A stretch of 50,693 nt of DNA, taken from positions 1 to 50,693 of the forward strand of contig JABJMO010000048.1 in NCBI GenBank assembly GCA_018659375.1, given 5' to 3'. Below the pieces are notes generated by a model. That model ran no database searches, had not been told where the DNA came from, and saw only the letters and a program-made list of their open reading frames with translations. The first letter of the stretch is position 1, and every line of letters begins with the position of its first letter. Source of the DNA: Methanobacteriota archaeon (GTDB taxonomy: Archaea > Thermoplasmatota > Poseidoniia > Poseidoniales > Poseidoniaceae). Positions 20,750 to 49,748 of the stretch are shown in pieces. The translations under genes were made by a program, and so were the position numbers.

Positions 20750-23344
20750 ATGATATCGCAATGGCCATACATGGTCGCACAGCGATTCATAGTGGTATGT
20801 TTGGCCGCGCTATTGTTAGGCTTCATGCCCACCACTTCTGCAGATAATAGCCTGCAAAGTGCCAATACTCTAATTGAAGGTGTGTCAGCATCAGGTCAAG
20901 TATGTTATGATGACGGATGCTCGCCAAATGACGAAATTGATTGGTGGCGAGTTTATGCTTTCAAGGGTGATATAGTCAGTATTTCATTTTCTGGAACGTT
21001 ACCAAATCCTGATTGGTTATGCTTTTGGGGTGATGGATGGGAAGGTGATTATTCAATCCATGACGCAGGTGGAGGACAAATTGCTTCTCTAGCATTGAGT
21101 GATGATAATCCAACTGGCACTTTGAGCAAAACCATGAACACAGCAGATTGGGTTTATGTGAAAATTAAAGGCAAAGACAGTTATTGTAACGACGCCATTG
21201 ATTATACTTTGACGGCCTCAATTGATTCTGGCGATCGAGATACCGATGAGGACGGATACATCGATACCGAAGATTCCTGCGACAATACCCCGGGAACTTC
21301 TGTTTACGACCGGAAAGGGTGTGTTGATTCAGACTCTGACGGTTATTCTGATCCTGAGGTGGGCTGGGGTCCAAATAATGGGGCAGATGCTTTTCCTTAC
21401 CAACCAACCCAGTGGCAAGATTCTGACAATGATGGTTTTGGTGATAATTTAGATGGCTATCAAGGTGACTTTTGCACCTATAATTCAGGTGGTTCTTACA
21501 ATGACAGATACGGTTGTTTAGATTCAGATGGTGACGGTTTTTCAGACCCCGACCCGGGAGGCTTGTATGGAGTTAGTGAATGGTTTGCTCATCCAATTGG
21601 CTTAGGTGATGCTTTCCCACTCGATAATACTCAATGGACAGATACCGACGGGGACGGTTATGGAGATAATTGGGAAGACCCTATGTGGAACCAAACTCAC
21701 ATTGCTTGGGGCATCGGTCAATGGCTAGAAACCGCCACTGAACCTGATGCATGCCCATTTATTACTGGTTCTTCATCTTCTGATAGATTTGGTTGTACCG
21801 ATACAGACGGCGACTCATACTCAGATGGAGATGAGAATTGGACCATGTACAACGGCTCGGATGCTTTTCCACTTGAACCGACTCAGTGGCAAGATTCAGA
21901 TTATGATGGATGGGGTGACAACCAGTCTTTCGGGGCCCAACGTATCGATGATTTCCCAGACAACCCATCTCAATGGCGAGACACTGACAAAGATGGTTGG
22001 GGTGACAATCAAACCTATGGGGCTTCACAGGTAGATGATTTCCCATTAGTTCCTTCACAATATCTCGATACAGATAATGATGGTTATGGGGATAACCAAA
22101 GCGGCTTTGAAGGCGATGTTTGTATTTACTCAACACCAGAAGAGGTAGAATCAAGTTGGATTTCTCGATTTGACCGGCTTGGATGCCGGGATATCGATAA
22201 GGATGGTTATTCTGACCCAACCAGTGATTGGATTGCCCACCCAGATGGTTTTGCTGATGCCTTCCCTGATGAGGTAAGTCAGTGGTACGATACAGATTCT
22301 GACGGCTATGGCGATAATACCGAATATTTTGATGGTCAAACTTGGCGCGAATCATTCCGTGGCGATAGTTGTAAAACCACGGTTGGATATTCGACATTTG
22401 ATAGATGGGGCTGTCCAGATGCCGATGGTGACGGATGGTCGGATACTACTCTCAATTGGCTGGCAAGTCCAGGCGGTAACGGCGATGCATGGCCCCTTGA
22501 TCCAACACAATGGCATGACAAAGATGGTGACGGTCGTGGTGATAATCCACAAGGCACAACCGCTGATGTCTGTCCAGACAATGCTGGTACATCTGTTGGC
22601 CCTATAGAAGGTGGAGATAGATGGGGCTGTATCGATACTGATGGTGACGGTTGGTCGGATTTAGGTGACGCATTTATTCATGAACCTACGCAATGGCGAG
22701 ACAGTGACGGTGATGGTTTTGGTGATGCTGCTGATGGCAATCAAGGCGATGCCTGTCCTGATTCAAGAGGGACCTCATTGATGGACCGATTGGGATGTCG
22801 GGATACCGATGGAGATGGTTGGTCAGACCCGGCCGAAAACTGGCCGTCTCATCCATTTGGATTAGCAGACTCATTCCCTAACGAAGCCTTACAATGGCGT
22901 GATACTGACGGGGACGGCTATGGAGATGTTTCTCTTGGTGCAATGCGGGACGATTGTCCAAATGATGCTGGAGATTCAACAAGAGATCTCCAAGGTTGTC
23001 CAGATAATAATGGCGACGGATGGTCTAATGATTATGGTGAATTCAAAGCCGCCATTGCCATTATGGGTGAGGACCCAGCCGCGTCTTGGCTGACATATCT
23101 AGTGATTGGTTTAGGATTTATTCTTGGAGCGTCAATCGCCTTAGTAGTCAAAATGGGTCGCGAAGAAGAGGACCTCAATGAGGAGCAATTATTTGATGAA
23201 AAACAACATATTGATTTCACCTCAAACCTTGCCGAGCCTGACGGTTTAGGGATGATTCCACTAGATGAGTTGCCACCAATACCACTCGACAATACGATTG
23301 TTCAACAGCAGGATAACATTACTGGAGGTGAGAATAATGAGTAA
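20750..23344 (+). CDS. TSP3-repeat surface protein with N-terminal PPC-like domain, TM-anchored
   Basis: 864 residues. A signal peptide (about 9-31) and a PPC-like beta-sandwich (about 34-160; NDEIDWWRVYAFKGDIVSI and DYTLTASI) precede about eight long TSP3 modules (about 163-755). Each module has a Cys pair (GD-x-C to GC-x-D-x-D-G-D-G) then FP-x-x-P-x-QW-x-D-x-D-x-DG-x-GDN. A TM helix (about 780-801) and a roughly 60-residue acidic tail follow. The Asp-rich loops should bind many calcium ions and make a stiff stalk. It is the first gene of an operon: its last 8 nt overlap the next gene, whose SD (GGAGGTGA) lies within this coding region. Ligand unknown. Confidence 0.9.
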   Translation: MISQWPYMVAQRFIVVCLAALLLGFMPTTSADNSLQSANTLIEGVSASGQVCYDDGCSPNDEIDWWRVYAFKGDIVSISFSGTLPNPDWLCFWGDGWEGDYSIHDAGGGQIASLALSDDNPTGTLSKTMNTADWVYVKIKGKDSYCNDAIDYTLTASIDSGDRDTDEDGYIDTEDSCDNTPGTSVYDRKGCVDSDSDGYSDPEVGWGPNNGADAFPYQPTQWQDSDNDGFGDNLDGYQGDFCTYNSGGSYNDRYGCLDSDGDGFSDPDPGGLYGVSEWFAHPIGLGDAFPLDNTQWTDTDGDGYGDNWEDPMWNQTHIAWGIGQWLETATEPDACPFITGSSSSDRFGCTDTDGDSYSDGDENWTMYNGSDAFPLEPTQWQDSDYDGWGDNQSFGAQRIDDFPDNPSQWRDTDKDGWGDNQTYGASQVDDFPLVPSQYLDTDNDGYGDNQSGFEGDVCIYSTPEEVESSWISRFDRLGCRDIDKDGYSDPTSDWIAHPDGFADAFPDEVSQWYDTDSDGYGDNTEYFDGQTWRESFRGDSCKTTVGYSTFDRWGCPDADGDGWSDTTLNWLASPGGNGDAWPLDPTQWHDKDGDGRGDNPQGTTADVCPDNAGTSVGPIEGGDRWGCIDTDGDGWSDLGDAFIHEPTQWRDSDGDGFGDAADGNQGDACPDSRGTSLMDRLGCRDTDGDGWSDPAENWPSHPFGLADSFPNEALQWRDTDGDGYGDVSLGAMRDDCPNDAGDSTRDLQGCPDNNGDGWSNDYGEFKAAIAIMGEDPAASWLTYLVIGLGFILGASIALVVKMGREEEDLNEEQLFDEKQHIDFTSNLAEPDGLGMIPLDELPPIPLDNTIVQQQDNITGGENNE
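21230..23040 (+). repeat. Eight long TSP3 modules in the 864-residue protein
   Basis: Irregular tandem modules of about 55-75 codons built from GC-x-D-x-D-G-D-G-x-SD and FP-x-x-P-x-QW-x-D-x-D-G-D-G-x-GDN. The same module type recurs in the 2062-residue protein (29815-31795). Confidence 0.75.
23324..23331 (+). promoter_or_regulatory. Shine-Dalgarno GGAGGTGA that fixes the start at 23337
   Basis: GGAGGTGA, 5 nt before ATG 23337 and inside the last codons of the upstream gene. It argues for the 437-residue form over a longer reading from 23265 and implies translational coupling. Confidence 0.75.
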
Positions 23345-24650
23345 TCAAAAAGTTTCGCTTATCTCAATTTTTATCATAATGTTCGCATCTTTTGCTACAG
23401 TAATAATTACTCCAAATGTGCAAGGTGAGGAAACAGAACAAGACCCGTTAGCTGATGCTGGAATTAGTTTAGTCGCCTTGAGAAATGATACCTTAGACAC
23501 CAATCAAGATGGCGATACAGATGCCATTCGAGTAGTCATAGTAGTCAGTACAGACAAAGAAAGTATGAACCTAGAACTTCGGTTAATCGGTGAGCATAAA
23601 GACAAACAAGTGATGGAGGTATTACAATTTTCATTTAGCGGCCAATCCAATGCGAGTTTAGTCTATGATGCATGGGCTACAGGAGAACATGAACTTAAAT
23701 TACAAATTGTCGATCAAGATGGCAACATAATCACTACGCTCGAGCTACCTACCTATGTATTGAAACCAGCCTTACAAACTCCAAGAATTATACTAGCTCT
23801 CAATGCTCCTCAAAATATTGAAACCGGTGACGAGTGCACCATATCTAGGGTGTTTGCCGATGAAACGGGTCCACGTTATGGTGCAAGCGGAGTAAGAACT
23901 TTCTCAGGTGCACCCTTTACCGTGCTTGATGCCCAAGACGCCTTAGATTGTTCTCATTGGCCAGCTGGCGATTATATCTTGAAGGAAGCCTATAGGAATG
24001 ATTTAGGCCAGACCACTGAAGATTGGCTTAATTTGACAATTCATAACCGGCCAGCACCTGAATTTTCCCTCGCAACATCTGGTAATGGCAATACTACGGA
24101 GACTGGATGTGCAATAACAATGCTCCAATCTGATGAAACAATTGATTTCTCAGGATTTCAAAAGATTTGGCGTATTCAAGGTGCTGAAGTAGTAAATGAT
24201 ATTGGGCATCAGTTTGATTGTTCGTCTTTACCAGCAGGAGTGCATCTAATCTCTCTAGAGGTTATTAACAACGAACTGATTAGTGCGATTGAAGCAGTAA
24301 ATCTGGTAAGATTACCTGGTGGTGAACTTACCGATGAGGAGAAATCCTCTGCTCCTTCACGTTCCTATGGGGAAGATACTGCCACAGAATCTGTCGGATG
24401 GATTTCAATTGGTGTGTTAGGTTTAGTAATTACTCTGCTTTCATATCTGATATTGGTTAGAGTGAAAGATGATGACGGACAGTTACCTATGCGTGATTTA
24501 GGGCCCGCTCCAATGATTTTATCGGATGGTTCCCCAGACTCTGAAGGATTGCCTACAACCACAGATGATGAAGGTGTTTTGTGGCGCCAACATCCAGATG
24601 GTAATCATGATTGGTGGGACACAGAATTACGTATTTGGGTTAGGTGGTGA
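23337..24650 (+). CDS. TM-anchored protein with two tandem Ig-like domains and a Trp-rich cytoplasmic tail
   Basis: 437 residues. A signal peptide (about 5-28) precedes an extracellular part of about 330 residues. It holds two related units, each with a Cys pair closing on LDCSHWPAGDYIL or FDCSSLPAGVHLI. A TM helix (about 350-371) is followed by a roughly 65-residue cytoplasmic tail. The tail ends in a compact aromatic motif, GVLWRQHPDGNHDWW and then RIWVRW, loosely like the Trp/His/Asp pattern of DUF2510-type tails. The gene overlaps its upstream neighbour by 8 nt and its downstream neighbour by about 4 nt, so the three products probably act together. No family is recognised. Confidence 0.8.
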   Translation: MSNQKVSLISIFIIMFASFATVIITPNVQGEETEQDPLADAGISLVALRNDTLDTNQDGDTDAIRVVIVVSTDKESMNLELRLIGEHKDKQVMEVLQFSFSGQSNASLVYDAWATGEHELKLQIVDQDGNIITTLELPTYVLKPALQTPRIILALNAPQNIETGDECTISRVFADETGPRYGASGVRTFSGAPFTVLDAQDALDCSHWPAGDYILKEAYRNDLGQTTEDWLNLTIHNRPAPEFSLATSGNGNTTETGCAITMLQSDETIDFSGFQKIWRIQGAEVVNDIGHQFDCSSLPAGVHLISLEVINNELISAIEAVNLVRLPGGELTDEEKSSAPSRSYGEDTATESVGWISIGVLGLVITLLSYLILVRVKDDDGQLPMRDLGPAPMILSDGSPDSEGLPTTTDDEGVLWRQHPDGNHDWWDTELRIWVRW

Positions 24651-25543
24651 GCCTCTTGGAGATTCTAGGGATTAGTTTGGTAGAGTCTATTTTGATTCTA
24701 GCAGCATTGATTTTAACATCAATTTCTATGAGATTATTCTACGTTTGGTATACTAGAATTAGGCCTCGCAAACCAAGTACAAATTCCGATTGGAATACTG
24801 ATTGTGAATTTCAATCTTCAGCTATTATCGAAGAACACCACATAACCTTTTCAAAAGTTAGAAATTTTACCTGGCGCACAACTAGGGACAGAGACGAAGA
24901 ATGGGACGAAAATGTGAAATTCGATGTGAGAGAAATCAAGGATGTATGGTTTATAGTTGACCATTTTCACAAAATTCATGGCCTAGCCCACACCTTTCTG
25001 AGTGTGGAATTTAACGATGGACGCTGTATTTCGTTTTCGTTTGAGGCACGGCGAGAAAAAGGTGTGCGGTATCATCCATGGAAAGGTATGTGGCGAGCGT
25101 ATGAACTATACTTGCTAGTTGGATATGAGAAAGATTTACTCGGGCTTAGAACAAATGCTAGAGGCAACAAAGATTACTTGTTTAGAGCTGTAACTCCACC
25201 TGATAAAGATCGCCAATTACTAATGGCAATAGGGCAAAAGATGAATCAGTTAACTAAAAACGCAGAGTGGTACCACTCATTATTTACTACATGTAATACT
25301 TCAATTGTTGAAGTTGTCAATAAAATAACTCCGGGTCGTATACCATTTGTATGGCGCAATTTCCTCCCCGGTTATACCCCTAAAGCCGCGTTTAAATTGG
25401 GTTTAATCGAAGATTGGGGAGGTTTGGAGAATACTCTGGAATTAGCCAGAGTTGACGAGGTGGCCAAATCATGGAATGGAACTGATAATTACAGTGAATT
25501 TATTAGGCGAAAGATGCCTAGTTCACCGGTCAATGAAGACTAG
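24647..25543 (+). CDS. DUF4105 (Lnb N-terminal-like) membrane-anchored putative Cys/His acyltransferase or peptidase
   Basis: 298 residues from GTG 24647, which forms a classic GTGA 4-nt overlap with the upstream stop; GTG 24644 is an alternative. One N-terminal TM helix (about 8-30) precedes a DUF4105-type domain (about 75-275). Recognisable blocks are AHTFLSVEF (His115), ISFSFEARREKG, MWRAYELYLLVGYEKDL, GLRTNARG, AEWYHSLFTTCNTSIVEV (Cys216) and FLPGYTPKAAFKLGLIEDW. His115 and Cys216 are the conserved catalytic-type residues. From memory, this domain is the catalytic part of Bacteroides lipoprotein N-acyltransferase Lnb. The archaeal substrate is unknown; lipoproteins or its operon partners are candidates. 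It overlaps the convergent thiamine pyrophosphokinase gene by 21 nt. Confidence 0.8.
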   Translation: MSLLEILGISLVESILILAALILTSISMRLFYVWYTRIRPRKPSTNSDWNTDCEFQSSAIIEEHHITFSKVRNFTWRTTRDRDEEWDENVKFDVREIKDVWFIVDHFHKIHGLAHTFLSVEFNDGRCISFSFEARREKGVRYHPWKGMWRAYELYLLVGYEKDLLGLRTNARGNKDYLFRAVTPPDKDRQLLMAIGQKMNQLTKNAEWYHSLFTTCNTSIVEVVNKITPGRIPFVWRNFLPGYTPKAAFKLGLIEDWGGLENTLELARVDEVAKSWNGTDNYSEFIRRKMPSSPVNED

Positions 25544-26146
25544 TAGCGAACCATTCTCACAGTTAATTGATAGGAATTCTTCTGCTGTAATATTATGCAA
25601 CCCCATAGTTGATGGACTCATATCATGATTGTTCAATTCCCATTTTGCTCCTTTGATGGTGACTTTTGCCGTTTCACCAATACTAAATAGTGAAAAAGAC
25701 ACTCCAGGATTAGATTTGTAATGAAGAGGATTTGACTTGCTAACAGCGATTACTATTGCATCATTTAGATGAAGTGTCACAGGAAGATCATGTTCTAACA
25801 AAGCAAAGTAATTGGCCATTTGATGGTCTGATTTACCACCATCAACACCGATAATATCAATTTTGTTAACAGAGAGGTTTTGGCAAAACCTCAGTGCTTT
25901 ACTAAGGTCGTTACTTTGTTGTTCATCAACTTTGATAATTTGGAGTTTATCTTGTTCTGCTCGTGCCAAATCTTGTTTAGTAATGCTATCTAAGTCACCA
26001 ATTAAGAAATCTACCGATATTTGACTCTCATAACAATCAGCAATCGCCCCATCACAAGCAATTATAGTGTCAGCGGATTGTATTAATTCATGCCATTTTG
26101 GCAAGTATTTTTGGTTAGTATTTCCTATGATTAACACTCTTGACAT
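25523..26146 (-). CDS. Thiamine pyrophosphokinase
   Basis: 207 residues from ATG 26146 (MSRVLIIGNTNQ); a longer reading to 26218 would run through a strong hairpin and is not favoured. The catalytic-domain blocks of thiamine pyrophosphokinase appear in order: ACDGAI, FLIGDLDSI, the NDLSKALRF block (D-x-T/S-D-x-x-K-A-L) and GVDGGKSDHQMAN, followed by the beta-sandwich thiamin-binding C-terminus. It makes thiamine diphosphate from thiamine and ATP, so the organism may salvage thiamine. The archaeal pterin enzyme MptE is a more distant alternative, but the DGA/GDLDS/GG-x-x-DH set fits TPK better. Divergent from the 2062-residue surface gene. Confidence 0.85.
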   Translation of the reverse strand: MSRVLIIGNTNQKYLPKWHELIQSADTIIACDGAIADCYESQISVDFLIGDLDSITKQDLARAEQDKLQIIKVDEQQSNDLSKALRFCQNLSVNKIDIIGVDGGKSDHQMANYFALLEHDLPVTLHLNDAIVIAVSKSNPLHYKSNPGVSFSLFSIGETAKVTIKGAKWELNNHDMSPSTMGLHNITAEEFLSINCENGSLLVFIDR

Positions 26147-26199
26147 AATCTGAGGCAAGTAGTCTAGGTTTGTCAATACTGTGATAATACTTGTTTGCT

Positions 26200-26216
26200 G
26201 ACCCCCTACGGGGGTC
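26200..26216. promoter_or_regulatory. Strong GC hairpin in a divergent promoter region
   Basis: GACCCCC (26200-26206), loop TAC, GGGGGTC (26210-26216): a perfect 7-bp stem of almost pure GC in AT-rich surroundings. It lies 54 nt before the TPK start and 35 nt before ATG 26251. No T-run follows on either strand, so it is not a simple terminator. An operator or RNA leader element is possible. Confidence 0.45.
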
Positions 26217-26250
26217 ATGGGATATCATAGACAATGGTTTTGAACCATCA

Positions 26251-29200
26251 ATGCGTCAGTTGTGTATGGCGAGTGATTCAACACACGAAAACTCGCTGAA
26301 GGCTTCGATAATTGTTTTATTAATGATTTTTCAAATTATGTCTCTTACCAGTGCTCAATTCAACACAGTTCCACAATCCGAATTGACTGCAGATTATCCT
26401 GTTCATAGTAGTCAAAGCGTGGGTGATTTAGCTCTTGATTTTGGTAATGAAATAGCCGGTCAATACATTGATTATGGCGGAGTTACAAACACTAAAGTGA
26501 TGTATGAATCAGAACTTGATATTTATCACGATTTTCAAATCCAAGATATGGCTAATGGTTTGGTGGAGTCAGTAGACGTAACAATCTCAGATTTACAAAA
26601 AATCAGTGCATGCTGGATAACTGATGCGGGAAGTGTATACAACTACAATGTTGACTTAGATAATGTTTCAGATTTAATGCAGGTCGATCAAGTCTCCACT
26701 AACCAAGGAGTAAATCCAATAGTTGATTGTGCTATTGCGGTAAAAGAGAACGGCAGAGAAACGATGCTATATGCTGATGGAGATGACTTAAAAGCAGCCC
26801 AAATTGCTTACGCAAGTCCGCTCTACTCTAATGGCGATGATTGGCATGTTCGCACTATATTAGAAGGAATTAATGCCAACAGCATTGAGTTGGAAGTGAC
26901 CTCAGAACAACTTGAATGGGGGCTATTTAGGGATGATATGGGTAGGCTGCACAGAGTCAATTACACCGGAGTATTTTGGGAAACAGGCATAATTGACAAT
27001 GGTCCTGTGGGTAACGACTTCGAACTTGCAATCGATAACGAGGATAAAATATCGATTTTATTTAACAAGGATAATAAAACGTTTTTACATACCATCAAAG
27101 GTCATGTTAGCACCACTGAAGCTGTATTCCAACATGAACACATGCACGATGATATCGGCTTGACTTTGGATGGTTATGGATTAATGCAAATGTTTTCTAC
27201 GTCTATTGAGGACAACATCACCACCGCAAAACTTCAGCGTTCATTGACCAATGAGAAAAACCAAATCAGTTCCGAGGCAACATTGTCTTTCCTTGCGAAC
27301 ACAGAAAACAGCACAGTTGCAGAGGTTATCTTTGCCGATTTCAACAACGATGGGTTTGACGATCTTGTATATTCTGAGCCCAATGCAGACACTTCGTTGT
27401 TAAGTGATAACGGAATCGTGTCTGTTCACTATGGTTCGGAAAATGGTATTGGCTTAATGCCTGATTTAACATTTGAAGGGCCAACAAACTCATCTAATCT
27501 TGGAAGTGGCTTGGCAGTAGGTGACTTTAACGGAGATAGTTACCCGGATATCTCATTAGGTTTGCCTGGCTTTGACAATAATAATGGCTCAGTCAGATTT
27601 TCCTTTGGCTCTAATCAAGGTTTAGCAACAGTGCTGTTAACAGTCCCGGGAGTATCTACTCCATCGTTGAATGGTGCTTCGTATGGTTCATGCTTAGAAT
27701 CTGTGGAAGACCTAAATTCAGACAATAAAGATGAATTATTAATCTGTTCAATTGGTTATGATTTACAGGGAGATACAGGTCTTGTAGAGTTATTCTTCGG
27801 TAACATCATAGCAACTACGTGGGTAAAAATGAACAGCCCAAATCAAATCACATCAGGATCAAACTTTGGTCGTTCAATTTCTGCAGATGGTGACTTAAAT
27901 GGCGATGGTTTTGTGGACTTAGTTATCGGCAATACCGGCGATTTAATCGATAGCTCAGGTTACTCTTCAGTTGAACTTAGATACGGCAATGCCATGGGTT
28001 TTTCCAGTGAACCGGACTTAGCCTTCCAGTCACTGTTAATCGGCAACTTGTTTGGTTACAATGTTGAGATAATGAATGATCTAAACGGCGATGGATTAGA
28101 TGAGTTGTTTATCTCGGAACCATATAACACTTCAAATGAATTCAATAGTGGCAACGTTTGGGTATTCTATGGGAATTTGTCGGGAATAGAATCAAGCCCA
28201 GATTATCGATTAATTGGTTCTTCAAATGAATTACTCGGATTGAATTTTGCGTCTGCTGGTGATACCAACCAAGACGGCTTCAACGATTTTTTCATGACCA
28301 GAAGAGCTAATGTTGCATCTACTAATGTTGAATTATATTTAGGCAGTTCCTCAGGTTTAATCGATAACTCGATTAACATTGCTTCTGGCGATTTGAGTTT
28401 TGGTCAAGTGATATCAAATTATGGTGATTCAAATGCCGATGGTCTACTAGAATTTTCTTTCTCTGCTCAAAACATAGATGAGAATCAAACAGTAAATAGT
28501 AGAATTAATATTCACTCTAGAGAGATTTGGGAAGAAATATATTTCACTATTGAGGGAGAGATGGAACATGGAAAGATTCAATCCTCTACTGATGGGTCTT
28601 CAAGAATTCTATATTCGGTAAGAAGTGGTGAAAATAATAATCTTCAAATGATTTCAGAAGAGAAAAATAGTCAAGGAGTTTATTGGTCAGTTCAGAATAT
28701 AACCTCACCATCACCTAATCATTTGACAAGTGTAAATTTCGAGATGACCTCTTCTGGTGAAGCATTCATTCTGTATTTTGACAATGGAATGCATCAAAGA
28801 ACTTACGATGCATTTGTTGGTTTAGAATCTAATGTGCCCACCAATTATAATGATGCTAGTTATGTAAACTCGGTATTTGACAATCATGGAACAAATTATG
28901 TTGTTTATTATTCACCAAGTTCCAACAATTTGATACTCAATGTAAAATCTGCATCAGGATGGTCAGAGCAAGTTATTGCAACAAATGCTAACATTGCTTC
29001 AGACATAAATCTAGTACTAAATCAAACAGGGCAACCAGTTGTGATTTATCGAGATGATTTAATCAATAATATACTGGTTGCTCATAATAATTCTGGCTGG
29101 GTTGTAGATTCTCTTAACTTCACGGGCGAGGTTATATCAAAATCTATGTCATCGGTTGTTACTGACCAAAATAACCTACTCATTTCGGCTTTCTTGAATG

Positions 29201-32200
29201 ATGGTAATTCTAACAACCTAACCATGATTTCATGGGACGGAAACAATACTAACCATTCGTTCATCGGTTTAGAATCAGATGGGGCCACAAAAATTGCAAT
29301 GGCTATCGATGGAGAGGGCACGGTCATTGTGTCCACATACTCTACTTCTGGTGTACTTGTGTTGTATGAAAAGCAAGTTGACTCACAGACTTGGAATTCT
29401 GTCCTGCTTCCTCAACCAATAGGGTTCTATTCAACCAATCACATCGAATTAATCGGCGGAATAACACCCACATTAGCGGTAAACAGTCAAAACAACTCAT
29501 TATTCTACAAAAGCGGAAGTAATTGGCAGGTTTTATCAACTGCTGAAATTCCTTCATTTGGAGAATTTTCTTTTGTCGTAAATGAAACTCATATCACAAT
29601 GATGACAGCCGCAACAGGAGGAAATAATCTAGCTTGGAATTCTATGGAAATAACCACTTCCCCAAACCATAACACTTGGCATCAGCAAATATTTCCCGAT
29701 ATTATTGTCAACAGTGGTTTAGTAGTCAATCAACATTCAAACGATACAATCTCCATTATAGTAGATGATTTAGCCTCAAATAGTCTATTAGAACTCCAAC
29801 TGAAACTTGATCGAGACAGTGATTTCCTCTTTGATGATATAGACCATTTACCTCATGTGCCAAATCAATGGTTCGATTCAGATGGAGACGGTTATGGCGA
29901 AAACACCAATGCTCCAATGAATGATAATTGTCCATCCCAATCTGGGCAATCATCAATTTTGTTGTTTGGTTGTTTTGATGCGGATAATGATGGCTATGAT
30001 GATATTAATGACGATTGTAACACTGGTTATGGTTTTTCATGGTTGGGAAGACTTGGCTGTTCAGATTTCGATCAAGACGGTTGGGTTGATTGGAGTTCAT
30101 TCTATCCATATGGAGACATCTTTAGCGATAATTGGAAACAAGCATTCGATTCAGATGGTGATTCCTACGGCGATAATCACGGTCCTGACTGTTGCGATAC
30201 TTGGTACGACCAAAACGCGCCTCCAGGAGACGAATTCCCGTATAATGTGAGGCAATATACCGACTTTGATGGCGATGGGTACGGCGATAATTCATCTGAT
30301 TCCCTAACAGGGGATGCTTGTAAGTTTGAGTATGGTGCATCATATCGGGATCGTTTAGGATGCGTCGATACAGACGGTGATGGTTCATCGGATCCAACTA
30401 ATTTCTGGAATTCAAGTTTAGGTGCAGACTTATGGCCGACAGATTCCACTCAATGGGCTGACTCTGATGGGGATGGTTTTGGTGATAATGGTTCTAAAAA
30501 TGCGACTAACCCAGATTATTTTCCCAACAATATCGCAGCATCTCAAGATTCTGATGAAGATGGATATCCGGACTTATTCACTGAATACTATAATGGTACC
30601 AATGCTGAAGGATTACAAATAGATGGTTGCCCACTAGTTGCTGGGAACTCATCTAATCCATATTACGGATGTCTCGACACTGACGGTGATAATTATCGCG
30701 ACATATACACTTTTGACATCAACCCAAATACTGGGTTGAGAGAAAACCAATCAGGTGATGCGTTCCCGTTCAATCCAGAACAGTGGACTGATGCTGATGG
30801 AGATGGTTTTGGTGATTTCCAAGGCGGCAATAATGCGGATGTGTGCCCTCAAGCGGTTGGGGTAATCAACGGGACATTGGGTATAGGTTGCCCCTTGATT
30901 GATGGCAATGATGATGATGGCGATTTTGTGATAAATGAGGAAGATTTGTGCCCAAATACGCAGTTCTGGTTAACGGTTAATCTTGATGGGTGTGCGTTAA
31001 ATCAAGTTGATTCAGATGATGATGGGGTAAGTGATGCAGATGATGTTTGCCCCTCAACGTTCTCACAAGACCCTGTAGATTCTAGCGGATGTAGCCAAGT
31101 ACAAAGAGAGGTAGATTCTGATGCAGACGGAATTTATGATTATCTCGATTCATGTGAAAACACACCAAGTCAAGAAGTACCTGATGAATTTGGTTGTTCA
31201 GCATCACAAAAAGATACAGATGGTGATGGAGTCACTGATGATGGGGATGTTTGTCCAAGTACAGAATTAGGTTATCCAGTATTAGCAGATGGTTGTACCG
31301 ATGAAACGGCGTTAGAGTTTGACTGGGATTCAGATGGTTATTCTGGTCAAGATGATTTATTCCCGTTTGAAGAAACTCAATGGTTTGATACAGATGGGGA
31401 TGGTTATGGAGATAATATTCTGGGATTAGAGGGGGATCAATGTCCTAACACCTCAGGTACTTCTACCGAAGATAGATTTGGTTGTCCAGATAGTGATTTA
31501 GATGGCTGGTCAGACCCCGGACAAGATTGGGCAGCGTCACCAAGTGGTATAGCAGATGCATTTTCTGAAGATGTTACTCAGTGGCGAGACCTTGACGGTG
31601 ATGGCTATGGTGATAATGGTACAGGTAATAACCCCGATTTATGCCCCACAACCAATTCATTGTATAGAACATCTGTAGATTTGCAAGGATGTTCAAACAA
31701 CGAACGAGATTCAGATGGTGACGGCTTGGTAGACAGCCTTGATAATTGTCCAGACGAGCCAAAGGGGTTAGACGGATATGCTGATGGTTGTCCGTTAGAA
31801 AAACAAGAATCCTCTAGTGAAGCCACAGAAATATTTGGATTAACAATAGTTACATTTATCGCCATTTGTCTAGTAGTGGTTGTTCTATTCATACTGTTAA
31901 TTATTCTTCGTAGAAGGGATATTGAAGAGGATTGGTTTGAGGAAGATGATGACTTTGAAGAAGATTACCAAGAAGAAAATCTCAGTTTACTAAATAAACC
32001 GCGGAAACAACCTACTCAGCACACGGTTCCAAGTCAAAGCAAAGCCAAACCCCCTAGTAATGGACCCACTGGAGGGCCTCCAAGCTTCACGTCACCGGCA
32101 AAAACTCCAGTTATCGCACCATCACAGCCGCCGGTTGAAAGTTCCCAAAGACAAATTCTTCCAGAAAACCTAATTACGCCTCAGAGGGCGACTAAAAAAT

Positions 32201-32439
32201 CTAAGAAAGTAAAGACTGTTAATGCTTCAAAGAAGAAAGTCAAGCGTGCAATCATTGAACCTGAACCAGATATTTTTGAAAAAGTGAGCCAATCAAAGAT
32301 TGATGCAGCTGTCAAAAATCTTGCCGATTTGACCGGTGATGTCGAGGAAAGACAATTGTTAATGAATCTACAAGAAGCAGGGTGGAATGCACCGCAATCT
32401 CGTGCGATAATCAACATGGCCAGAAAGGAAAGGGATTGA
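26251..32439 (+). CDS. 2062-residue surface protein: FG-GAP propeller, TSP3 stalk, TM and long cytoplasmic tail
   Basis: Start ATG 26251 (26266 possible; an upstream TTG at 26191 lies before the hairpin). Signal peptide about 14-33. FG-GAP/integrin-like repeats (about 356-735) with calcium loops such as ADFNNDGFDDL, GDFNGDSYPDI, GDLNGDGFVDL and NDLNGDGLDEL make a probable seven-blade propeller. A second beta-rich region (about 750-1185, many short VIYRDD-type strands) may be another propeller. TSP3 modules (about 1190-1850) and a TM helix (about 1861-1884) follow. The tail of about 175 residues is acidic, then Pro/Lys-rich, ending in a helical block around ERQLLMNLQEAGWNAPQSRAI. The architecture suggests adhesion or ligand binding with a cytoplasmic signalling or tethering end. 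The EF-hand gene follows. Confidence 0.9.
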   Translation: MRQLCMASDSTHENSLKASIIVLLMIFQIMSLTSAQFNTVPQSELTADYPVHSSQSVGDLALDFGNEIAGQYIDYGGVTNTKVMYESELDIYHDFQIQDMANGLVESVDVTISDLQKISACWITDAGSVYNYNVDLDNVSDLMQVDQVSTNQGVNPIVDCAIAVKENGRETMLYADGDDLKAAQIAYASPLYSNGDDWHVRTILEGINANSIELEVTSEQLEWGLFRDDMGRLHRVNYTGVFWETGIIDNGPVGNDFELAIDNEDKISILFNKDNKTFLHTIKGHVSTTEAVFQHEHMHDDIGLTLDGYGLMQMFSTSIEDNITTAKLQRSLTNEKNQISSEATLSFLANTENSTVAEVIFADFNNDGFDDLVYSEPNADTSLLSDNGIVSVHYGSENGIGLMPDLTFEGPTNSSNLGSGLAVGDFNGDSYPDISLGLPGFDNNNGSVRFSFGSNQGLATVLLTVPGVSTPSLNGASYGSCLESVEDLNSDNKDELLICSIGYDLQGDTGLVELFFGNIIATTWVKMNSPNQITSGSNFGRSISADGDLNGDGFVDLVIGNTGDLIDSSGYSSVELRYGNAMGFSSEPDLAFQSLLIGNLFGYNVEIMNDLNGDGLDELFISEPYNTSNEFNSGNVWVFYGNLSGIESSPDYRLIGSSNELLGLNFASAGDTNQDGFNDFFMTRRANVASTNVELYLGSSSGLIDNSINIASGDLSFGQVISNYGDSNADGLLEFSFSAQNIDENQTVNSRINIHSREIWEEIYFTIEGEMEHGKIQSSTDGSSRILYSVRSGENNNLQMISEEKNSQGVYWSVQNITSPSPNHLTSVNFEMTSSGEAFILYFDNGMHQRTYDAFVGLESNVPTNYNDASYVNSVFDNHGTNYVVYYSPSSNNLILNVKSASGWSEQVIATNANIASDINLVLNQTGQPVVIYRDDLINNILVAHNNSGWVVDSLNFTGEVISKSMSSVVTDQNNLLISAFLNDGNSNNLTMISWDGNNTNHSFIGLESDGATKIAMAIDGEGTVIVSTYSTSGVLVLYEKQVDSQTWNSVLLPQPIGFYSTNHIELIGGITPTLAVNSQNNSLFYKSGSNWQVLSTAEIPSFGEFSFVVNETHITMMTAATGGNNLAWNSMEITTSPNHNTWHQQIFPDIIVNSGLVVNQHSNDTISIIVDDLASNSLLELQLKLDRDSDFLFDDIDHLPHVPNQWFDSDGDGYGENTNAPMNDNCPSQSGQSSILLFGCFDADNDGYDDINDDCNTGYGFSWLGRLGCSDFDQDGWVDWSSFYPYGDIFSDNWKQAFDSDGDSYGDNHGPDCCDTWYDQNAPPGDEFPYNVRQYTDFDGDGYGDNSSDSLTGDACKFEYGASYRDRLGCVDTDGDGSSDPTNFWNSSLGADLWPTDSTQWADSDGDGFGDNGSKNATNPDYFPNNIAASQDSDEDGYPDLFTEYYNGTNAEGLQIDGCPLVAGNSSNPYYGCLDTDGDNYRDIYTFDINPNTGLRENQSGDAFPFNPEQWTDADGDGFGDFQGGNNADVCPQAVGVINGTLGIGCPLIDGNDDDGDFVINEEDLCPNTQFWLTVNLDGCALNQVDSDDDGVSDADDVCPSTFSQDPVDSSGCSQVQREVDSDADGIYDYLDSCENTPSQEVPDEFGCSASQKDTDGDGVTDDGDVCPSTELGYPVLADGCTDETALEFDWDSDGYSGQDDLFPFEETQWFDTDGDGYGDNILGLEGDQCPNTSGTSTEDRFGCPDSDLDGWSDPGQDWAASPSGIADAFSEDVTQWRDLDGDGYGDNGTGNNPDLCPTTNSLYRTSVDLQGCSNNERDSDGDGLVDSLDNCPDEPKGLDGYADGCPLEKQESSSEATEIFGLTIVTFIAICLVVVVLFILLIILRRRDIEEDWFEEDDDFEEDYQEENLSLLNKPRKQPTQHTVPSQSKAKPPSNGPTGGPPSFTSPAKTPVIAPSQPPVESSQRQILPENLITPQRATKKSKKVKTVNASKKKVKRAIIEPEPDIFEKVSQSKIDAAVKNLADLTGDVEERQLLMNLQEAGWNAPQSRAIINMARKERD
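29815..31795 (+). repeat. TSP3 modules in the 2062-residue protein
   Basis: About ten Asp-rich modules of the same kind as in the 864-residue protein (GC-x-D-x-D-G-D-G, QW-x-D-x-D-G-D-G-x-GDN), with short CP...GC units towards the end. Shared module design suggests duplication or exchange between the two genes. Confidence 0.7.
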
Positions 32440-32498: not shown

Positions 32499-34040
32499 GT
32501 GGCTGAACCAGTACTAGAAGGCGCATCAATGCCAGATGGTATCGAGGTCGATGAAGCAGCTGCTTATTTTGGTGTGACAGAGTCCTCGGATATTGTTCAT
32601 ACATTGATGTCCATGGAACGTAATCAATCGATTAGTCAATTTTTCACCATGGTCTCAGATATCATTCTAAAACCTGGAGAGTTTGATTTTGAAGAGGCTA
32701 GTCAAGCACTAAATTGTGAGGGTGGTGAAATATACTATCTTGTTTCTGGACATCTTGGCTTAATGAGTTTTGGCGACCCGATTCTACATTATTTGGGTTT
32801 ACCAGATTCACTAGGCCAGGAATCAAAAAACAGCAAACCAAATATTGACCAAAAACAATTTGATTCTTTAACTAGTCTCGCTAATCCGATGAATATACTG
32901 AAAGTTTTAGCGATTGCCAATAATACGGGTGGTTCACAAGAAGTGATGAAATATTACTTGACAATGAGTGAACTAATGATGAATGTTGAATCAAATGTAG
33001 TAACACTCACGGAAATTTCAGAGGAGTTTGATGCATCTTTGGATGTCATTGGCCATACTCTACCAATTTCGGTATTAGCAGGTTCATCGATAGACTTGTC
33101 AAAGGCGATCATAGATGCCCCACCAACTATCAAGAAAGAGACGCCAAAAGTAACGCAACAGGTAGAACAAGCGATAAAATTGCCAGAAGTTGAACAGGCT
33201 GCACCTCTCCAAGAGGAGGTTTCAGTCCCCTCAGTTCCTTTGCCTGGACAGTCAATATCGGCTGAAATTATTGAAGATAAAATAGAGCCAATAATTGAAA
33301 CCGAACTCACTGATAGAAAGGCGGCTAAAGCAACTGATAATGCATTCGAAGGTGCATTTGGCATGGCGCCAGAAACCAATACATTACAAGCTGAAGATTC
33401 TGTACAGGCGGACGAAGTCGAGGAGGATCTAGTGACTGAGGCTAGTATCGAAGCAATGGTAGTAGAAGAACAAGAAACTGAAGAACCATTTCACAGTGCT
33501 GCCGAGATGTTTATTCAATCAGATACCGATGGTGATGGTAATTTATCGGTCGAAGAATTATCCCAAGCAACTGGATTGTCTATTGAAGAAGCCGAAGAAA
33601 TTCATCAAACCGCTGATTTGGATGAGGATGGGTCTATGTCACTTTCAGAATTTATTGCCTCTCCTGTAGTCGAAAAAGTCGCTTCAAACCTACCAAGACC
33701 TGTTGCTCCAGTAAGACGGCCAGTCAGCCTTAATGAACAACCAAATAATGTTCAGCAATCTCCGGAAAACCCGGTAAATAGCCCTCCAACTCAACAAGCA
33801 TTCCCTCAACCACCAATCTCTAGACCAATCCCCCCACAAAATGTTAGCCCACAACCATCTGTTAGGCAACAACCAATTGGTATTCCGCAACCAACCAATC
33901 AAGCTCCACTACAACAAAACCAATGGAATCAACCAATTCAACCAACAATTCGTTCAGGAGTCATGTGCCGTAGTTGCGGCATTGGTATTGACCCATATTG
34001 GCGCTTTTGCCCAGTATGCGGGGGCCAAAATTTAGGCTAA
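32499..34040 (+). CDS. Cytoplasmic protein with paired EF-hands and a C-terminal zinc ribbon
   Basis: 513 residues with a GTG start, no signal peptide and no TM. An N-terminal helical region (about 1-210) that I do not recognise is followed by an acidic linker. A pair of EF-hands (about 335-390) has loops DTDGDGNLSVEE and DLDEDGSMSLSE, both with the canonical acidic calcium ligands. A long Pro/Gln/Asn-rich linker and a zinc ribbon (about 489-508, CRSCG then CPVCG) end it. It looks like a calcium-responsive adaptor. It starts 59 nt after the FG-GAP/TSP3 receptor-like gene and may act with that protein's long cytoplasmic tail; this is inference. It is convergent with the M29-like gene. Confidence 0.82.
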   Translation: MAEPVLEGASMPDGIEVDEAAAYFGVTESSDIVHTLMSMERNQSISQFFTMVSDIILKPGEFDFEEASQALNCEGGEIYYLVSGHLGLMSFGDPILHYLGLPDSLGQESKNSKPNIDQKQFDSLTSLANPMNILKVLAIANNTGGSQEVMKYYLTMSELMMNVESNVVTLTEISEEFDASLDVIGHTLPISVLAGSSIDLSKAIIDAPPTIKKETPKVTQQVEQAIKLPEVEQAAPLQEEVSVPSVPLPGQSISAEIIEDKIEPIIETELTDRKAAKATDNAFEGAFGMAPETNTLQAEDSVQADEVEEDLVTEASIEAMVVEEQETEEPFHSAAEMFIQSDTDGDGNLSVEELSQATGLSIEEAEEIHQTADLDEDGSMSLSEFIASPVVEKVASNLPRPVAPVRRPVSLNEQPNNVQQSPENPVNSPPTQQAFPQPPISRPIPPQNVSPQPSVRQQPIGIPQPTNQAPLQQNQWNQPIQPTIRSGVMCRSCGIGIDPYWRFCPVCGGQNLG

Positions 34041-46630: not shown

Positions 46631-48742
46631 ATGGACAAAAAAATAACTTTTGCTATTGTTTTGATGATGTGCCTTGCAGGATGTATGCGCTCAGTGGATG
46701 ACAATATCGGTGGCCCGTGGTGCAACAGTAATTCCGATGCGGAAGGAATTGTGAACAATACTGGTGAAACTTCAGAGGAATGTACCACTAAAGACACACT
46801 AAAAAATGCGATTCAAGATTTCGTCGACCTGATTGAAAATGGCCCTGATGCTAATATTACCACTCCAGTTGGTTATACTATGTCAGTTCAAGAGGTTTCG
46901 ACAACCGGCGATATTTGGACATATCATGAAACCACGATTATCAGTCCAAATGGGTTTAAGATAACTACCGAAGACAATTATGGTAATGATAGTAAAATCG
47001 TAGATTACATTGTCGAAGGTACTCAAGTACAGGTTTCTGTCGTAAGCGATGAAGAATCTACTCAAGTTAGGATGAATAACACAAACACTCACCGAGATAT
47101 TTTCGACCTTTGGTTCGGCAATATTGATGATTCATGGGACGGGATTTGTCATGCTGCTTGCGGCCAATGTGATGGGCCTAGCGCTTATGACTGTCTGACT
47201 TGTGCAGAAGCAGATGACCAATTATACGATCAAGATAATGACGGTGCAGGCTTGTGTGTATACTCTATTGAGACACATTGGGCAGATCGAGCATTTCAAC
47301 TAAATGGGTCTCAAGAACACTATGATCAAGTTATGAATGTATCACTTGAAAGTCGTGAATCAGAGTATCATCAGTTAAGAAATGAACTTGGTATGGAAGA
47401 CCCAACTGCTGAGGATTACACTCAGTATTACAATCCGGTTTCCGTAAATATAACTGGATTTAGGACAGTTGATGATGGAATGGTTTTTTCAGGCCTCGTC
47501 AACTTTGAAGGTTCTCCATTTGGGGCGATTGAAATTTATGCTGACAGTTCATTGACTGTCACTGGTTTTGGCCTTACCGATGTTGAGGATTCAAGAAATA
47601 ATGTTAGATTCAACCTAATTTCTGGCGGTGAAACAGTCGTTGATATGGGTCTGCAACAGAGTGCCATACCGTTTTCTCTTGATTTGCAAGAAGATTATGA
47701 AGGTGGAGGATCTGTAGAAGATTTCGGTTTAATGTATATCTCAATGTACGACTTAAATGACGATAACTTGGTAACCGCTCTTGAAATCTCATACTATTCA
47801 TGTCAATTAGGCGGTTTCACCCTTGAAGAATGCTTAGATGAAGAGATTGATAATGAAACTCTTGCAATTTATGAATTTTCTTTGAGAGCTTATGATACCA
47901 ATATGGATGGTTATGCTAGTTCTGACGAATTTGTTGCATGGTTTGAACTGGCTGCATATGTTGGTGAGAATGGCGGATGTTTCGATGAATTTACCTACAA
48001 CCTATCGATTGCTGAAGAGGATTGTAATGGTGACTCGCAATTCTGGGAAGATGCAACAGAATCCGAGGAGGAAGAGGAACTAGAATTTACTGGCTACTGG
48101 GTGGATTATGAAACCGCTAATTGGTCATGTAATTGGGAAGATACTGCAGACCCAGATGAAGATTATACCTCTTATTATTGGAGTTGTGACGACATCCGTG
48201 ACCCACCCGAAGATACTGGTGACAATGATTGGTATTATTGTGAATATTATGATGACATTGCAACACACTACTGTACTAACGGGTTTGGTAGTCAAGGCAC
48301 AGACGAAAATGGGGAATGGGGCAATTCAGCATCATTTACCCATTGGCGCGACGGTGGGGACCCAAGGAACGTTGAAGATGATGATTCTGATGAAGATGAC
48401 AGTATTATGTTTACAGTAGATACATTGTTGTATGGATTAGCAGGAGATATGAATGATTACAACCTTACCTTTGCTAACTGTGTAGAAGCCGGTTATGATG
48501 ACAACGGAGATTACACCAAGCGAACCTGTCAACCAGATTTATTCTCCATGTCCATCGCAGAGTCGGAGGAATATGGAATGATATCGTATCTTGATAATGA
48601 TAATTCAGGAACAATTTCCTCAGGAGATGACATTATCATATATTTGTCTAGTTTTATAGAGATCGATGATGCTACTCATGTTAGGCTGTACTCGCAAGAG
48701 GCTGACAATTACAACGACCAGAACTCTTTGTTGCAAAATTAG
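46631..48742 (+). CDS. Acidic lipoprotein with EF-hand-like calcium motifs
   Basis: 703 residues. The N-terminus MDKKITFAIVLMMCLAGC ends in a lipobox (L-A-G-C, Cys18), so it should be lipid-anchored outside the cell. A globular beta-rich part (about 50-370) includes a Cys-rich CHAACGQCDGPSAYDCLTC patch. EF-hand-like loops follow: DLNDDNLVTALE (about 377-388), DTNMDGYASSDE (about 422-433) and DNDNSGTISSGD near the C-terminus. The region in between is strongly acidic and rich in Trp, Tyr and paired Cys. Role unknown; extracellular calcium binding or sensing is plausible. Confidence 0.85.
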   Translation: MDKKITFAIVLMMCLAGCMRSVDDNIGGPWCNSNSDAEGIVNNTGETSEECTTKDTLKNAIQDFVDLIENGPDANITTPVGYTMSVQEVSTTGDIWTYHETTIISPNGFKITTEDNYGNDSKIVDYIVEGTQVQVSVVSDEESTQVRMNNTNTHRDIFDLWFGNIDDSWDGICHAACGQCDGPSAYDCLTCAEADDQLYDQDNDGAGLCVYSIETHWADRAFQLNGSQEHYDQVMNVSLESRESEYHQLRNELGMEDPTAEDYTQYYNPVSVNITGFRTVDDGMVFSGLVNFEGSPFGAIEIYADSSLTVTGFGLTDVEDSRNNVRFNLISGGETVVDMGLQQSAIPFSLDLQEDYEGGGSVEDFGLMYISMYDLNDDNLVTALEISYYSCQLGGFTLEECLDEEIDNETLAIYEFSLRAYDTNMDGYASSDEFVAWFELAAYVGENGGCFDEFTYNLSIAEEDCNGDSQFWEDATESEEEEELEFTGYWVDYETANWSCNWEDTADPDEDYTSYYWSCDDIRDPPEDTGDNDWYYCEYYDDIATHYCTNGFGSQGTDENGEWGNSASFTHWRDGGDPRNVEDDDSDEDDSIMFTVDTLLYGLAGDMNDYNLTFANCVEAGYDDNGDYTKRTCQPDLFSMSIAESEEYGMISYLDNDNSGTISSGDDIIIYLSSFIEIDDATHVRLYSQEADNYNDQNSLLQN

Positions 48743-48803: not shown

Positions 48804-49748
48804 ATGCGACTCGTTAGGTCACTGCTGTTAGTCAGTTTACTAATTTCAGCCTCGTTAGTGGGTTGTATTAGCGAGGAAGGAACTACTGTAGTAATTGACG
48901 CAGAATCATTATTGGAGGTGGAAAATCCTTGCTTGCAAGGCTCAAGTGCTATTTCCCAAACAATGACAGAAATCATCGTTAATGGCGAATCCAGATTATT
49001 TAGATTATCAGCACCAAGCTCAGCAGCAGGAATAGAGTTGCCAATCATCATTGCCTTTCATGGCGGAGGCGGTGCAGCAGAAGATTTCCAGCAACAAGGT
49101 GAATTTGATCAGTTAGCAGAGCAAGAGAAATTCATCATGGCATATGCTATTGCACAAGATGACAGAACTGCTTCTGAAGGTGAGTGGTACCTAAATACCG
49201 CAGCAACTTCTAGCGATGATAATGATTTTACTGACGCAATCGTGGATGAGTTGTCAAAATCATATTGCATAAACCAAGACAGATTATACGCAATTGGCTA
49301 TTCACTAGGTTCAATGTTTACCTATGAAGTTGCTTGCCAACTCAACCAACGCTTTGCGGCAGTTGCGTCTTTTGCCGGAACTATGCCAGTACAGCCAGAA
49401 ACTTGTGATATGTTTGGCAGCATGTCAGTCATGCATATCCACGGCAAACTCGATTATATTATTGATTATGACGATGATTGGGATTGGAAAGATGGAGAGC
49501 ATGAAGGTGTTGGTACAATGAGTGGTGTTCCTGGAATGATCGATTATTGGGGGCAAAAATTAGTTTGCCAAACCAGCGATACTAATAGCGACTTTCAACT
49601 TGAACACATAATTCATTCACAGTGTTCTAACAATGCTCGAGTCGAGCATTATGGTTTAGAATTTCAGGAGCATACTTGGCCCGATGAAATAGACGGTACT
49701 GCAACCTATCAACTAATCTGGAATTTCCTTAGTGACTTTACCAATTAG
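48804..49748 (+). CDS. Lipoprotein esterase of the CE1/PHB-depolymerase type
   Basis: 314 residues. A lipoprotein signal ends in LVGC (Cys21). The alpha/beta-hydrolase core shows the oxyanion-loop motif IIAFHGGGG, the nucleophile elbow AIGYSLGSMF (Ser167), HIHGKLDYIIDY carrying the acidic residue, and EHTWP near the C-terminus with the likely catalytic His. This is the LpqC/feruloyl esterase/polyhydroxyalkanoate depolymerase group. As an anchored exo-enzyme it would release acids from plant-like or algal polyesters or ester-linked glycans. Two conserved-looking Cys pairs suit an extracellular site. The substrate cannot be told. Confidence 0.9.
   Translation: MRLVRSLLLVSLLISASLVGCISEEGTTVVIDAESLLEVENPCLQGSSAISQTMTEIIVNGESRLFRLSAPSSAAGIELPIIIAFHGGGGAAEDFQQQGEFDQLAEQEKFIMAYAIAQDDRTASEGEWYLNTAATSSDDNDFTDAIVDELSKSYCINQDRLYAIGYSLGSMFTYEVACQLNQRFAAVASFAGTMPVQPETCDMFGSMSVMHIHGKLDYIIDYDDDWDWKDGEHEGVGTMSGVPGMIDYWGQKLVCQTSDTNSDFQLEHIIHSQCSNNARVEHYGLEFQEHTWPDEIDGTATYQLIWNFLSDFTN

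What the first reader, a model, noticed from the sequence alone, without database searches (positions are those of the whole stretch)
24647..25543. Archaeal DUF4105/Lnb-like protein with intact His/Cys pair in a surface-protein operon
The blocks AHTFLSVEF, EARREKG, YELYLLVGYEKDL, WYHSLFTTCNTS and FLPGYTPKAAFKLGL match the bacterial DUF4105 pattern, with His115 and Cys216 kept. As I recall, this domain is the catalytic part of Bacteroides lipoprotein N-acyltransferase Lnb. The window also encodes lipobox proteins (46631, 48804). How archaeal lipoproteins are finished at the N-terminus is poorly known, so this could be an archaeal lipoprotein-modifying enzyme, or a Cys acyltransferase/peptidase acting on its operon partners.
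Basis: partly seen in the sequence, partly recalled or inferred. Interest (0 to 1): 0.72.

Follow-up and report, generated by a model that had tools for sequence, protein, structure and literature searches.

The report
Inward-facing archaeal DUF4105 acyltransferase-like enzyme
An abundant group of ocean archaea carries a relative of a bacterial enzyme that attaches fatty chains to surface proteins, but here the active part seems to sit inside the cell, so it more likely works on the cell's own membrane fats than on surface proteins.

Summary
The family is in 201 of 243 genomes of the order (Poseidoniales).

The lipoprotein interpretation is not supported. The protein has one predicted transmembrane helix. 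In 120 of 125 distinct archaeal sequences more Lys/Arg follow that helix than precede it; in 8 of 10 bacterial relatives more precede it. Composition is like that of neighbouring cytoplasmic proteins, not the acidic exported ones. LspA was found in 0 of 21 relatives, Lgt in 18 of 243 genomes and not in this one. In 11 of 14 loci of the order's other family the gene sits between gyrA and aroA.

Best reading: an inward-facing, permuted papain-like thiol acyltransferase or acyl-hydrolase acting on ester-linked acyl lipids, in an order with PlsC-type acyltransferases (126 of 126) and no G1P dehydrogenase above cut-off. Fold and side are predictions; the substrate is inferred.

The parts
24644..25543 (+). 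DUF4105/Lnb_N-family membrane-anchored enzyme, 299 aa, GTG start
   Evidence: PF13387 E = 2.7e-22
24677..24760 (+). N-terminal helix predicted to span the membrane, residues 12-39 of the model, with no Lys or Arg before it
   Evidence: AlphaFold2 model helix 12-39; hydropathy and flank counts
24755..24772 (+). basic cluster RIRPRK (residues 38-43) at the membrane boundary, partly an insertion relative to bacterial relatives; predicts a cytoplasmic C-terminal domain
24896..25366 (+). PF13387 Lnb_N domain (residues 85-241)
   Evidence: invariant in 122 of 122 archaeal rows (window protein counted twice) and 10 of 10 bacterial, and in the 15 rows first left out; strand 115-123
   Evidence: invariant as for His116; helix 217-228
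23340..24650 (+). upstream exported membrane protein (signal peptide, C-terminal helix) overlapping the enzyme gene by 7 bp; neighbour in 77 of 79 close-relative loci, in none of 12 loci of the other family's main group
25523..26218 (-). thiamin pyrophosphokinase-like gene, convergent, overlapping the 3' end by 21 bp; neighbour only
   Evidence: PF04263 E = 7.1e-23

Best explanation
The gene encodes a single-span membrane enzyme of the DUF4105 family, a circularly permuted papain-like (NlpC/P60, LRAT-related) thiol enzyme, whose catalytic domain faces the cytoplasm. Cys217, at the start of a helix, would be activated by His116 on a strand, take an acyl chain from an ester-linked membrane lipid of the inner leaflet as a thioester, and pass it to water (phospholipase-like) or to an acceptor amine, lysolipid or alcohol (transacylase-like). 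This is the PLAAT way of working rather than the Lnb way. Shown here: family, invariance of the dyad, purifying selection on one pair, distribution across the order. Predicted: order of secondary structures, cytoplasmic side. Inferred: thioester chemistry and lipid substrate.
For: Family and dyad. Distribution: 201 of 243 order genomes; 114 of 126 order genomes and 0 of 263 others in the phylum sample. Topology: K+R after the helix exceed K+R before it in 120 of 125 distinct archaeal sequences, equal in 4, fewer in 1 (means 3.88 vs 0.52; 124 of 125 with the nearest start). The positive-inside rule holds in the neighbouring exported protein: signal peptide 72 of 77, C-terminal helix 74 of 77. 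In bacterial relatives more K+R precede the last helix in 8 of 10, equal in 2. Composition: archaeal domains average -0.5 net per 100 residues (n = 124) against -9.7 to -15.8 for four exported neighbour families; in the window the protein is +0.3 while the lipobox esterase is -11.5. Fold: mean pLDDT 81.4, His116 on strand 115-123, Cys217 opening helix 217-228, as papain-like enzymes require (PMC10318531, passage). Relatives act on acyl lipids (PMC12994826, passages). Acyl-lipid setting: PlsC-family 126 of 126, G1PDH above cut-off 0 of 126, in line with PMC6461757 and PMC6962369.
Against: No assay of an archaeal DUF4105 protein turned up in the paper searches. The known DUF4105 enzyme, Lnb, acts on lipoproteins, outside the cytoplasm, and Tox-Act1 is toxic in the periplasm but not in the cytoplasm (PMC12994826). 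Ester-linked lipids in Poseidoniales are a genomic prediction. PlsC-family genes are also in 12 of 12 order genomes without DUF4105 and in 30 of 263 genomes outside the order, including 8 of 8 of the same class, 4 of which have G1PDH over cut-off; so the enzyme does not track them tightly. Bacterial DUF4105 domains are also near neutral (-1.9 per 100, n = 10), so composition is partly a family trait; several exported comparators are acidic Ca-binding-type repeats, and one window protein without an evident signal peptide (32499-34040) is as acidic as the exported ones. By a simple hydropathy cut the 125 archaeal sequences have one segment in 115, none in 6 and two in 4. Topology is a prediction. 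The His-Cys distance is unmeasured. Sequence searches found no credible solved relative.
Confidence: 0.45

Rival explanations
1. It is an archaeal lipoprotein N-acyltransferase of the Lnb type: the domain faces outside and acylates the free N-terminal Cys of processed lipobox proteins.
For: Same Pfam domain and dyad as Bacteroides Lnb (Lnb assignment from PMC12994826). Lipobox proteins exist in this window. DUF4105 and Lnt replace each other in three bacterial genomic contexts (PMC12994826).
Against: Predicted cytoplasmic domain. LspA 0 of 21. Lgt over cut-off in 18 of 243 against DUF4105 in 201 of 243, and 12 of the 18 Lgt genomes have DUF4105. The nearest lipobox genes found in the window are 21-23 kb away.
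Confidence: 0.12
2. It is a cytoplasmic, membrane-bound thiol enzyme acting on proteins or peptides (protein acyl-transfer, de-acylation, amidase or peptidase) rather than on lipids.
For: The same fold cluster includes deubiquitinases/desumolyases and lipid amidases (PMC10318531, passages); cytoplasmic side.
Against: The permuted clades described with DUF4105 act on acyl lipids (PMC12994826); no one neighbour gene is kept across the order's loci read.
Confidence: 0.2
3. It makes or trims an N-acyl amino-lipid or another acylated small molecule at the inner face, not bulk membrane phospholipid.
For: PLAAT enzymes are N- and O-acyltransferases using phospholipid acyl chains (PMC11989323: abstract start; passages); topology fits.
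Against: No such biosynthetic cluster was recognised around the gene in the loci read; only some neighbours were checked against families.
Confidence: 0.13
4. A recently acquired or decaying bacterial gene without a function in the archaeon.
For: Relatives outside the order were found here only in bacteria and three phage records.
Against: One archaeal group (100/99 support against 10 bacterial rows) across both families, dyad invariant, dN/dS 0.035 for one pair.
Confidence: 0.02

Closest known systems
Proteobacterial DUF4105 (PF13387) membrane proteins
   Same: Nearest relatives found outside the order: 28-32% identity over 84-89% of the protein in the 40 of 105 plasmid records listed; same dyad and flanking invariant residues, same position of a helix just before the W-x-x-[DE] segment.
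   Different: By a hydropathy cut 6 of 10 read have three N-terminal segments, 2 have two and 2 have one; K+R precede the last helix in 8 of 10, predicting a periplasmic domain. Archaeal ones keep one helix with basic residues after it.
Bacteroides Lnb (lipoprotein N-acyltransferase)
   Same: Shares the PF13387 domain and, by the paper's family description, the His/Cys pair.
   Different: Lnb acts on exported lipoproteins. Pfam calls its domain N-terminal periplasmic; my recollection is that a membrane domain follows it. Here the helix is N-terminal, no hydrophobic helix follows, and the domain is predicted cytoplasmic. The Lnb paper (PMC11573676) is not held and was not read; no Lnb sequence was compared directly.
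LRAT/PLAAT acyltransferases
   Same: Permuted papain-like thiol enzymes with a Cys/His centre acting on acyl lipids (PMC12994826, PMC11989323, passages); likely the same way of working; cytosol-facing and membrane-anchored as recalled.
   Different: No Pfam LRAT match (one search lists PF13387 and a weak AP2 match up to E = 1); PLAAT anchors are recalled to be C-terminal.
Tox-Act1 (T6SS effector domain)
   Same: Sister clade of DUF4105 by PMC12994826; permuted NlpC/P60 with conserved His/Cys; phospholipase.
   Different: Secreted antibacterial effector acting in the periplasm; here a conserved chromosomal membrane protein, mostly one copy per genome.

Membership tests
PF13387 Lnb_N (DUF4105) | Score over the curated gathering cut-off | tested here: met
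   79.6 bits vs 22.2
PF13387 Lnb_N (DUF4105) | Conserved His and Cys | tested here: met
   122 of 122 archaeal rows, 10 of 10 bacterial; also 15 of 15 rows first left out
Permuted papain-like (NlpC/P60) fold | His on a strand preceding in sequence a helix that begins with the Cys | tested here: met
   strand 115-123, helix 217-228, mean pLDDT 81.4; secondary structure only
Permuted papain-like (NlpC/P60) fold | His and Cys side chains adjacent; fold match to LRAT or YiiX structures | not testable with these tools
   No coordinates returned; fold search switched off
Lnb lipoprotein N-acyltransferase | Catalytic domain outside the cytoplasm | tested here: not met
   Predicted cytoplasmic: (prediction, not experiment)
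Lnb lipoprotein N-acyltransferase | Membrane domain after the catalytic domain (feature recalled) | tested here: inconclusive
   The longest later helix of the model is 188-205 and is rich in charged and polar residues; the feature itself is from memory
Lnb lipoprotein N-acyltransferase | Diacylated lipoprotein substrates made by Lgt and LspA in the same cell | tested here: not met
   LspA 0 of 21; Lgt not found in G000 (90.65% complete) and over cut-off in 18 of 243; an archaeal-type pathway (AliA/AliB) was not tested
Lnb lipoprotein N-acyltransferase | N-acylation activity | not testable with these tools
   needs an assay
LRAT/PLAAT (PF04970) | Sequence match to the family | tested here: not met
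   No PF04970 match listed up to E = 1
LRAT/PLAAT (PF04970) | Lipid transacylase or phospholipase activity | not testable with these tools
   needs an assay

The most novel reading that the evidence does not exclude
Poseidoniales turned a bacterial, outward-facing DUF4105 enzyme inside out, apparently by losing upstream helices and moving the basic residues to the other side of the remaining one. They use it on the inner leaflet to move fatty-acyl chains within a mixed ether/ester membrane. If so, an enzyme that needs ester-linked acyl donors is independent genomic evidence that these archaea really have such lipids.
Probability: 0.28. Interest if true: 0.8.

Novelty: new variant of a known kind. 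Interest (0 to 1): 0.55.

Why it matters
Which lipids Marine Group II archaea make is an open question: a study of waters they dominate concluded that they do not seem to make the known archaeal membrane lipids, and their genomes lack G1P dehydrogenase while carrying PlsC-like genes (PMC6962369, PMC6461757, PMC7852524; passages). A conserved acyl-lipid-type enzyme gives a single gene product that can be expressed and asked whether it uses acyl lipids, ether lipids or both. It would also be a natural case of a membrane enzyme family changing sides of the membrane. In the held library a search for 'DUF4105' found two papers; 'archaea' occurs 0 times in the main text of one and only in reference titles in the other. 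That search does not cover most subscription papers or preprints.

Tried and rejected
Operon-partner idea: rejected because the neighbourhood differs between families. Lipoprotein-pathway co-occurrence: LspA 0 of 21, Lgt 18 of 243 with no positive association (12 of 18 Lgt genomes have DUF4105, against 201 of 243 overall). Defence role: no PADLOC match up to E = 1. Viral origin: a viral-contig scan found no relative, PHROGs only a match at E = 0.18; three phage records match a bacterial relative. Solved-structure searches by sequence gave nothing credible. Fold search, coordinates and a whole-genome charge calibration were not possible. AliA/AliB homologs were not searched, because I had no model or sequence for them. 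A Bacteroides Lnb sequence was not obtained, so it is in neither the tree nor the topology comparison. The bacterial sample is plasmid-borne only (10 sequences, all Pseudomonadota), so the tree cannot show the donor or the direction of transfer; treekit also warned of long branches meeting. The archaeal samples are best-match lists, biased to close relatives. Other archaeal phyla were not surveyed. Rows dropped before the charge count: 11 ORFs. On re-check 4 of these could be scored: K+R after against before 4 to 0, 4 to 0, 3 to 0, and 4 to 4 (4 to 0 with the nearest start; two of the four have N runs upstream); 1 is truncated; 6 were not scored by the script, and by eye their basic residues follow the helix (5 printed, the sixth, L150, is a second copy of L130). 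Rows dropped before the conservation count: those 11 and 4 with X or under 240 residues; all 15 have the His and the Cys. Near-identical rows were dropped before the tree and the structure alignment.

Full report
Observation. The ORF at 24644-25543 is real and starts at a GTG that directly follows an in-frame stop. It matches Pfam PF13387 Lnb_N at E = 2.7e-22 over almost the whole profile; bacterial proteins annotated 'DUF4105' match the same model. They are invariant in all 122 archaeal rows aligned (the window protein counted twice) and in 10 of 10 bacterial relatives, together with W50, R73, F75, S132, E134, E162, D164, R169, Y210, G243 and R288. The 15 archaeal rows left out of that count also have both. 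To the nearest fetched relative dN/dS is 0.035 (dS could not be estimated for the other three pairs).

Where it occurs. 201 of 243 genomes of the order have the family. In a sample of 389 Thermoplasmatota genomes it is in 114 of 126 of the order and 0 of 263 others (the 126 is my count of order rows). Of 14 control genomes only Bacteroides ihuae matched. Other archaeal phyla were not surveyed. The archaeal sequences form one group against ten plasmid-borne bacterial ones (100/99, midpoint root, long branches flagged), with two subgroups. One holds only sequences of the order's second family (f2); the other holds the window's family (f1) and one f2 genus (g15). Bacterial sampling is too thin to name a donor.

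Neighbourhood. Of 79 close-relative loci in which the script found the target (of 80), 77 have the same upstream membrane-protein gene. Of 14 f2 loci read more widely, 12 have aroA downstream and 11 have gyrB-gyrA upstream; the other two, genus g15, keep the surface-gene setting with one gene inserted. Of 11 f1 loci in the same set 8 have the usual upstream gene directly upstream and 3 do not. Pfam confirmed GyrB, GyrA, AroA in L136 and the inserted AI-2E-type transporter in L138 only. The surface genes are therefore a local setting, not a constant partner.

Which side of the membrane. By a simple hydropathy cut, 115 of 125 distinct archaeal sequences have one hydrophobic segment, 6 none and 4 two. 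At the N-terminal helix the Lys and Arg after it outnumber those before it in 120 of 125, are equal in 4 and fewer in 1 (generous starts; 124 and 1 equal with nearest starts). As a check, the upstream exported protein obeys the positive-inside rule in 72 of 77 signal peptides and 74 of 77 C-terminal helices. In bacterial relatives the corresponding helix has more basic residues before it in 8 of 10 and equal numbers in 2; 6 of 10 show three segments, 2 two and 2 one. Archaeal proteins also carry a short basic insertion right after the helix. Composition agrees: 124 archaeal domains average -0.5 net charge per 100 residues, against -9.7 to -15.8 for four exported neighbour families and -6.0 to +1.8 for nine cytoplasmic ones (several of these family labels are my reading of the sequence, not a search). 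In the window the protein has 13.4% K+R and net +0.3, while the two lipobox proteins have 3-4% and -11.5 or lower; one protein without an evident signal peptide (32499-34040) is also strongly acidic. Bacterial DUF4105 domains are near neutral too (-1.9), so composition is the weaker line. Together the domain is predicted cytoplasmic; I put this at about 0.85.

Fold. The AlphaFold2 model (50 sequences, mean pLDDT 81.4, pTM 0.78) has a long helix at 12-39, then strands, with His116 near the start of strand 115-123 and Cys217 as the first residue of helix 217-228.

Mechanism. By the passages read, DUF4105 is a permuted NlpC/P60 clade, sister to the phospholipase domain Tox-Act1, and one member is Lnb (PMC12994826). 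I infer a Cys thioester intermediate and acyl transfer or hydrolysis at the inner leaflet. The order gives a reason: PlsC-family acyltransferases are in 126 of 126 order genomes and G1PDH above cut-off in 0 of 126, against 30 and 244 of 263 outside the order. Eight order genomes have weak G1PDH matches (E 9.7e-5 to 7.9e-4); that these are among the 14 below cut-off is inferred from their E-values. PlsY is in 0 of 21 relatives. None of 270 Poseidoniales MAGs had the G1P enzyme in PMC6461757 (passage), and mixed membranes have been proposed (PMC6962369, PMC7852524, passages). The lipid substrate remains inference: the 12 order genomes without DUF4105 also have PlsC, and so do 8 of 8 genomes of the same class outside the order, 4 of them with G1PDH over cut-off.

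Against the lipoprotein reading. Besides topology: LspA 0 of 21; Lgt over cut-off in 18 of 243, not in this genome, 12 of the 18 with DUF4105. [quoted passage not shown] AliA/AliB were not searched here. The Lnb paper itself is not held, so Lnb details beyond citing papers are recalled.

Verdict. It is a new variant of a known kind.

Noticed in passing
L157:1450-2214 (-) and L157:2-1435 (-); also L156, L158, L166-L168: Lgt-family (PF01790) genes in 18 of 243 Poseidoniales genomes over cut-off. In L157 the gene lies beside a radical SAM gene scoring TrsS 8.4e-94 and tetraether lipid synthase Tes 5.4e-80, both below the curated cut-off. A review states that such lipoprotein-pathway homologs have not been identified in archaea. 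The other loci's neighbours were not read.
   Followed up: partly
Poseidoniales genomes, e.g. G000:C17, C9, C77, C50: One to four PlsC-family acyltransferase genes per genome in the 21 searched, many with open frames near 265 aa or 530-550 aa, while PlsY and G1PDH were not found.
   Followed up: partly
L133-L137, L140-L142, L144-L146: gyrB-gyrA-DUF4105-aroA gene order in 11 of 14 loci of the order's second family; GyrB, GyrA and AroA are strong Pfam matches in the one checked, L136.
   Followed up: partly
window 20750-23344, 26191-32439, 46631-48742, 32499-34040: Very acidic proteins (the first three: K+R 3-4%, net -12 to -18 per 100 residues). Exported and other proteins of this window separate by charge with exceptions, such as 32499-34040 (net -10.7, EF-hand match, no evident signal peptide).
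   Followed up: partly
window 48804-49748: Lipobox protein with an esterase / short-chain PHA depolymerase-like domain (NF050058 E = 3e-30, below cut-off).
   Followed up: no
L163:3878-4927: DUF4105 genes also occur on Pseudomonadota plasmids (105 of 72,556 records match the window protein), here beside a predicted dfrA41 resistance gene.
   Followed up: no
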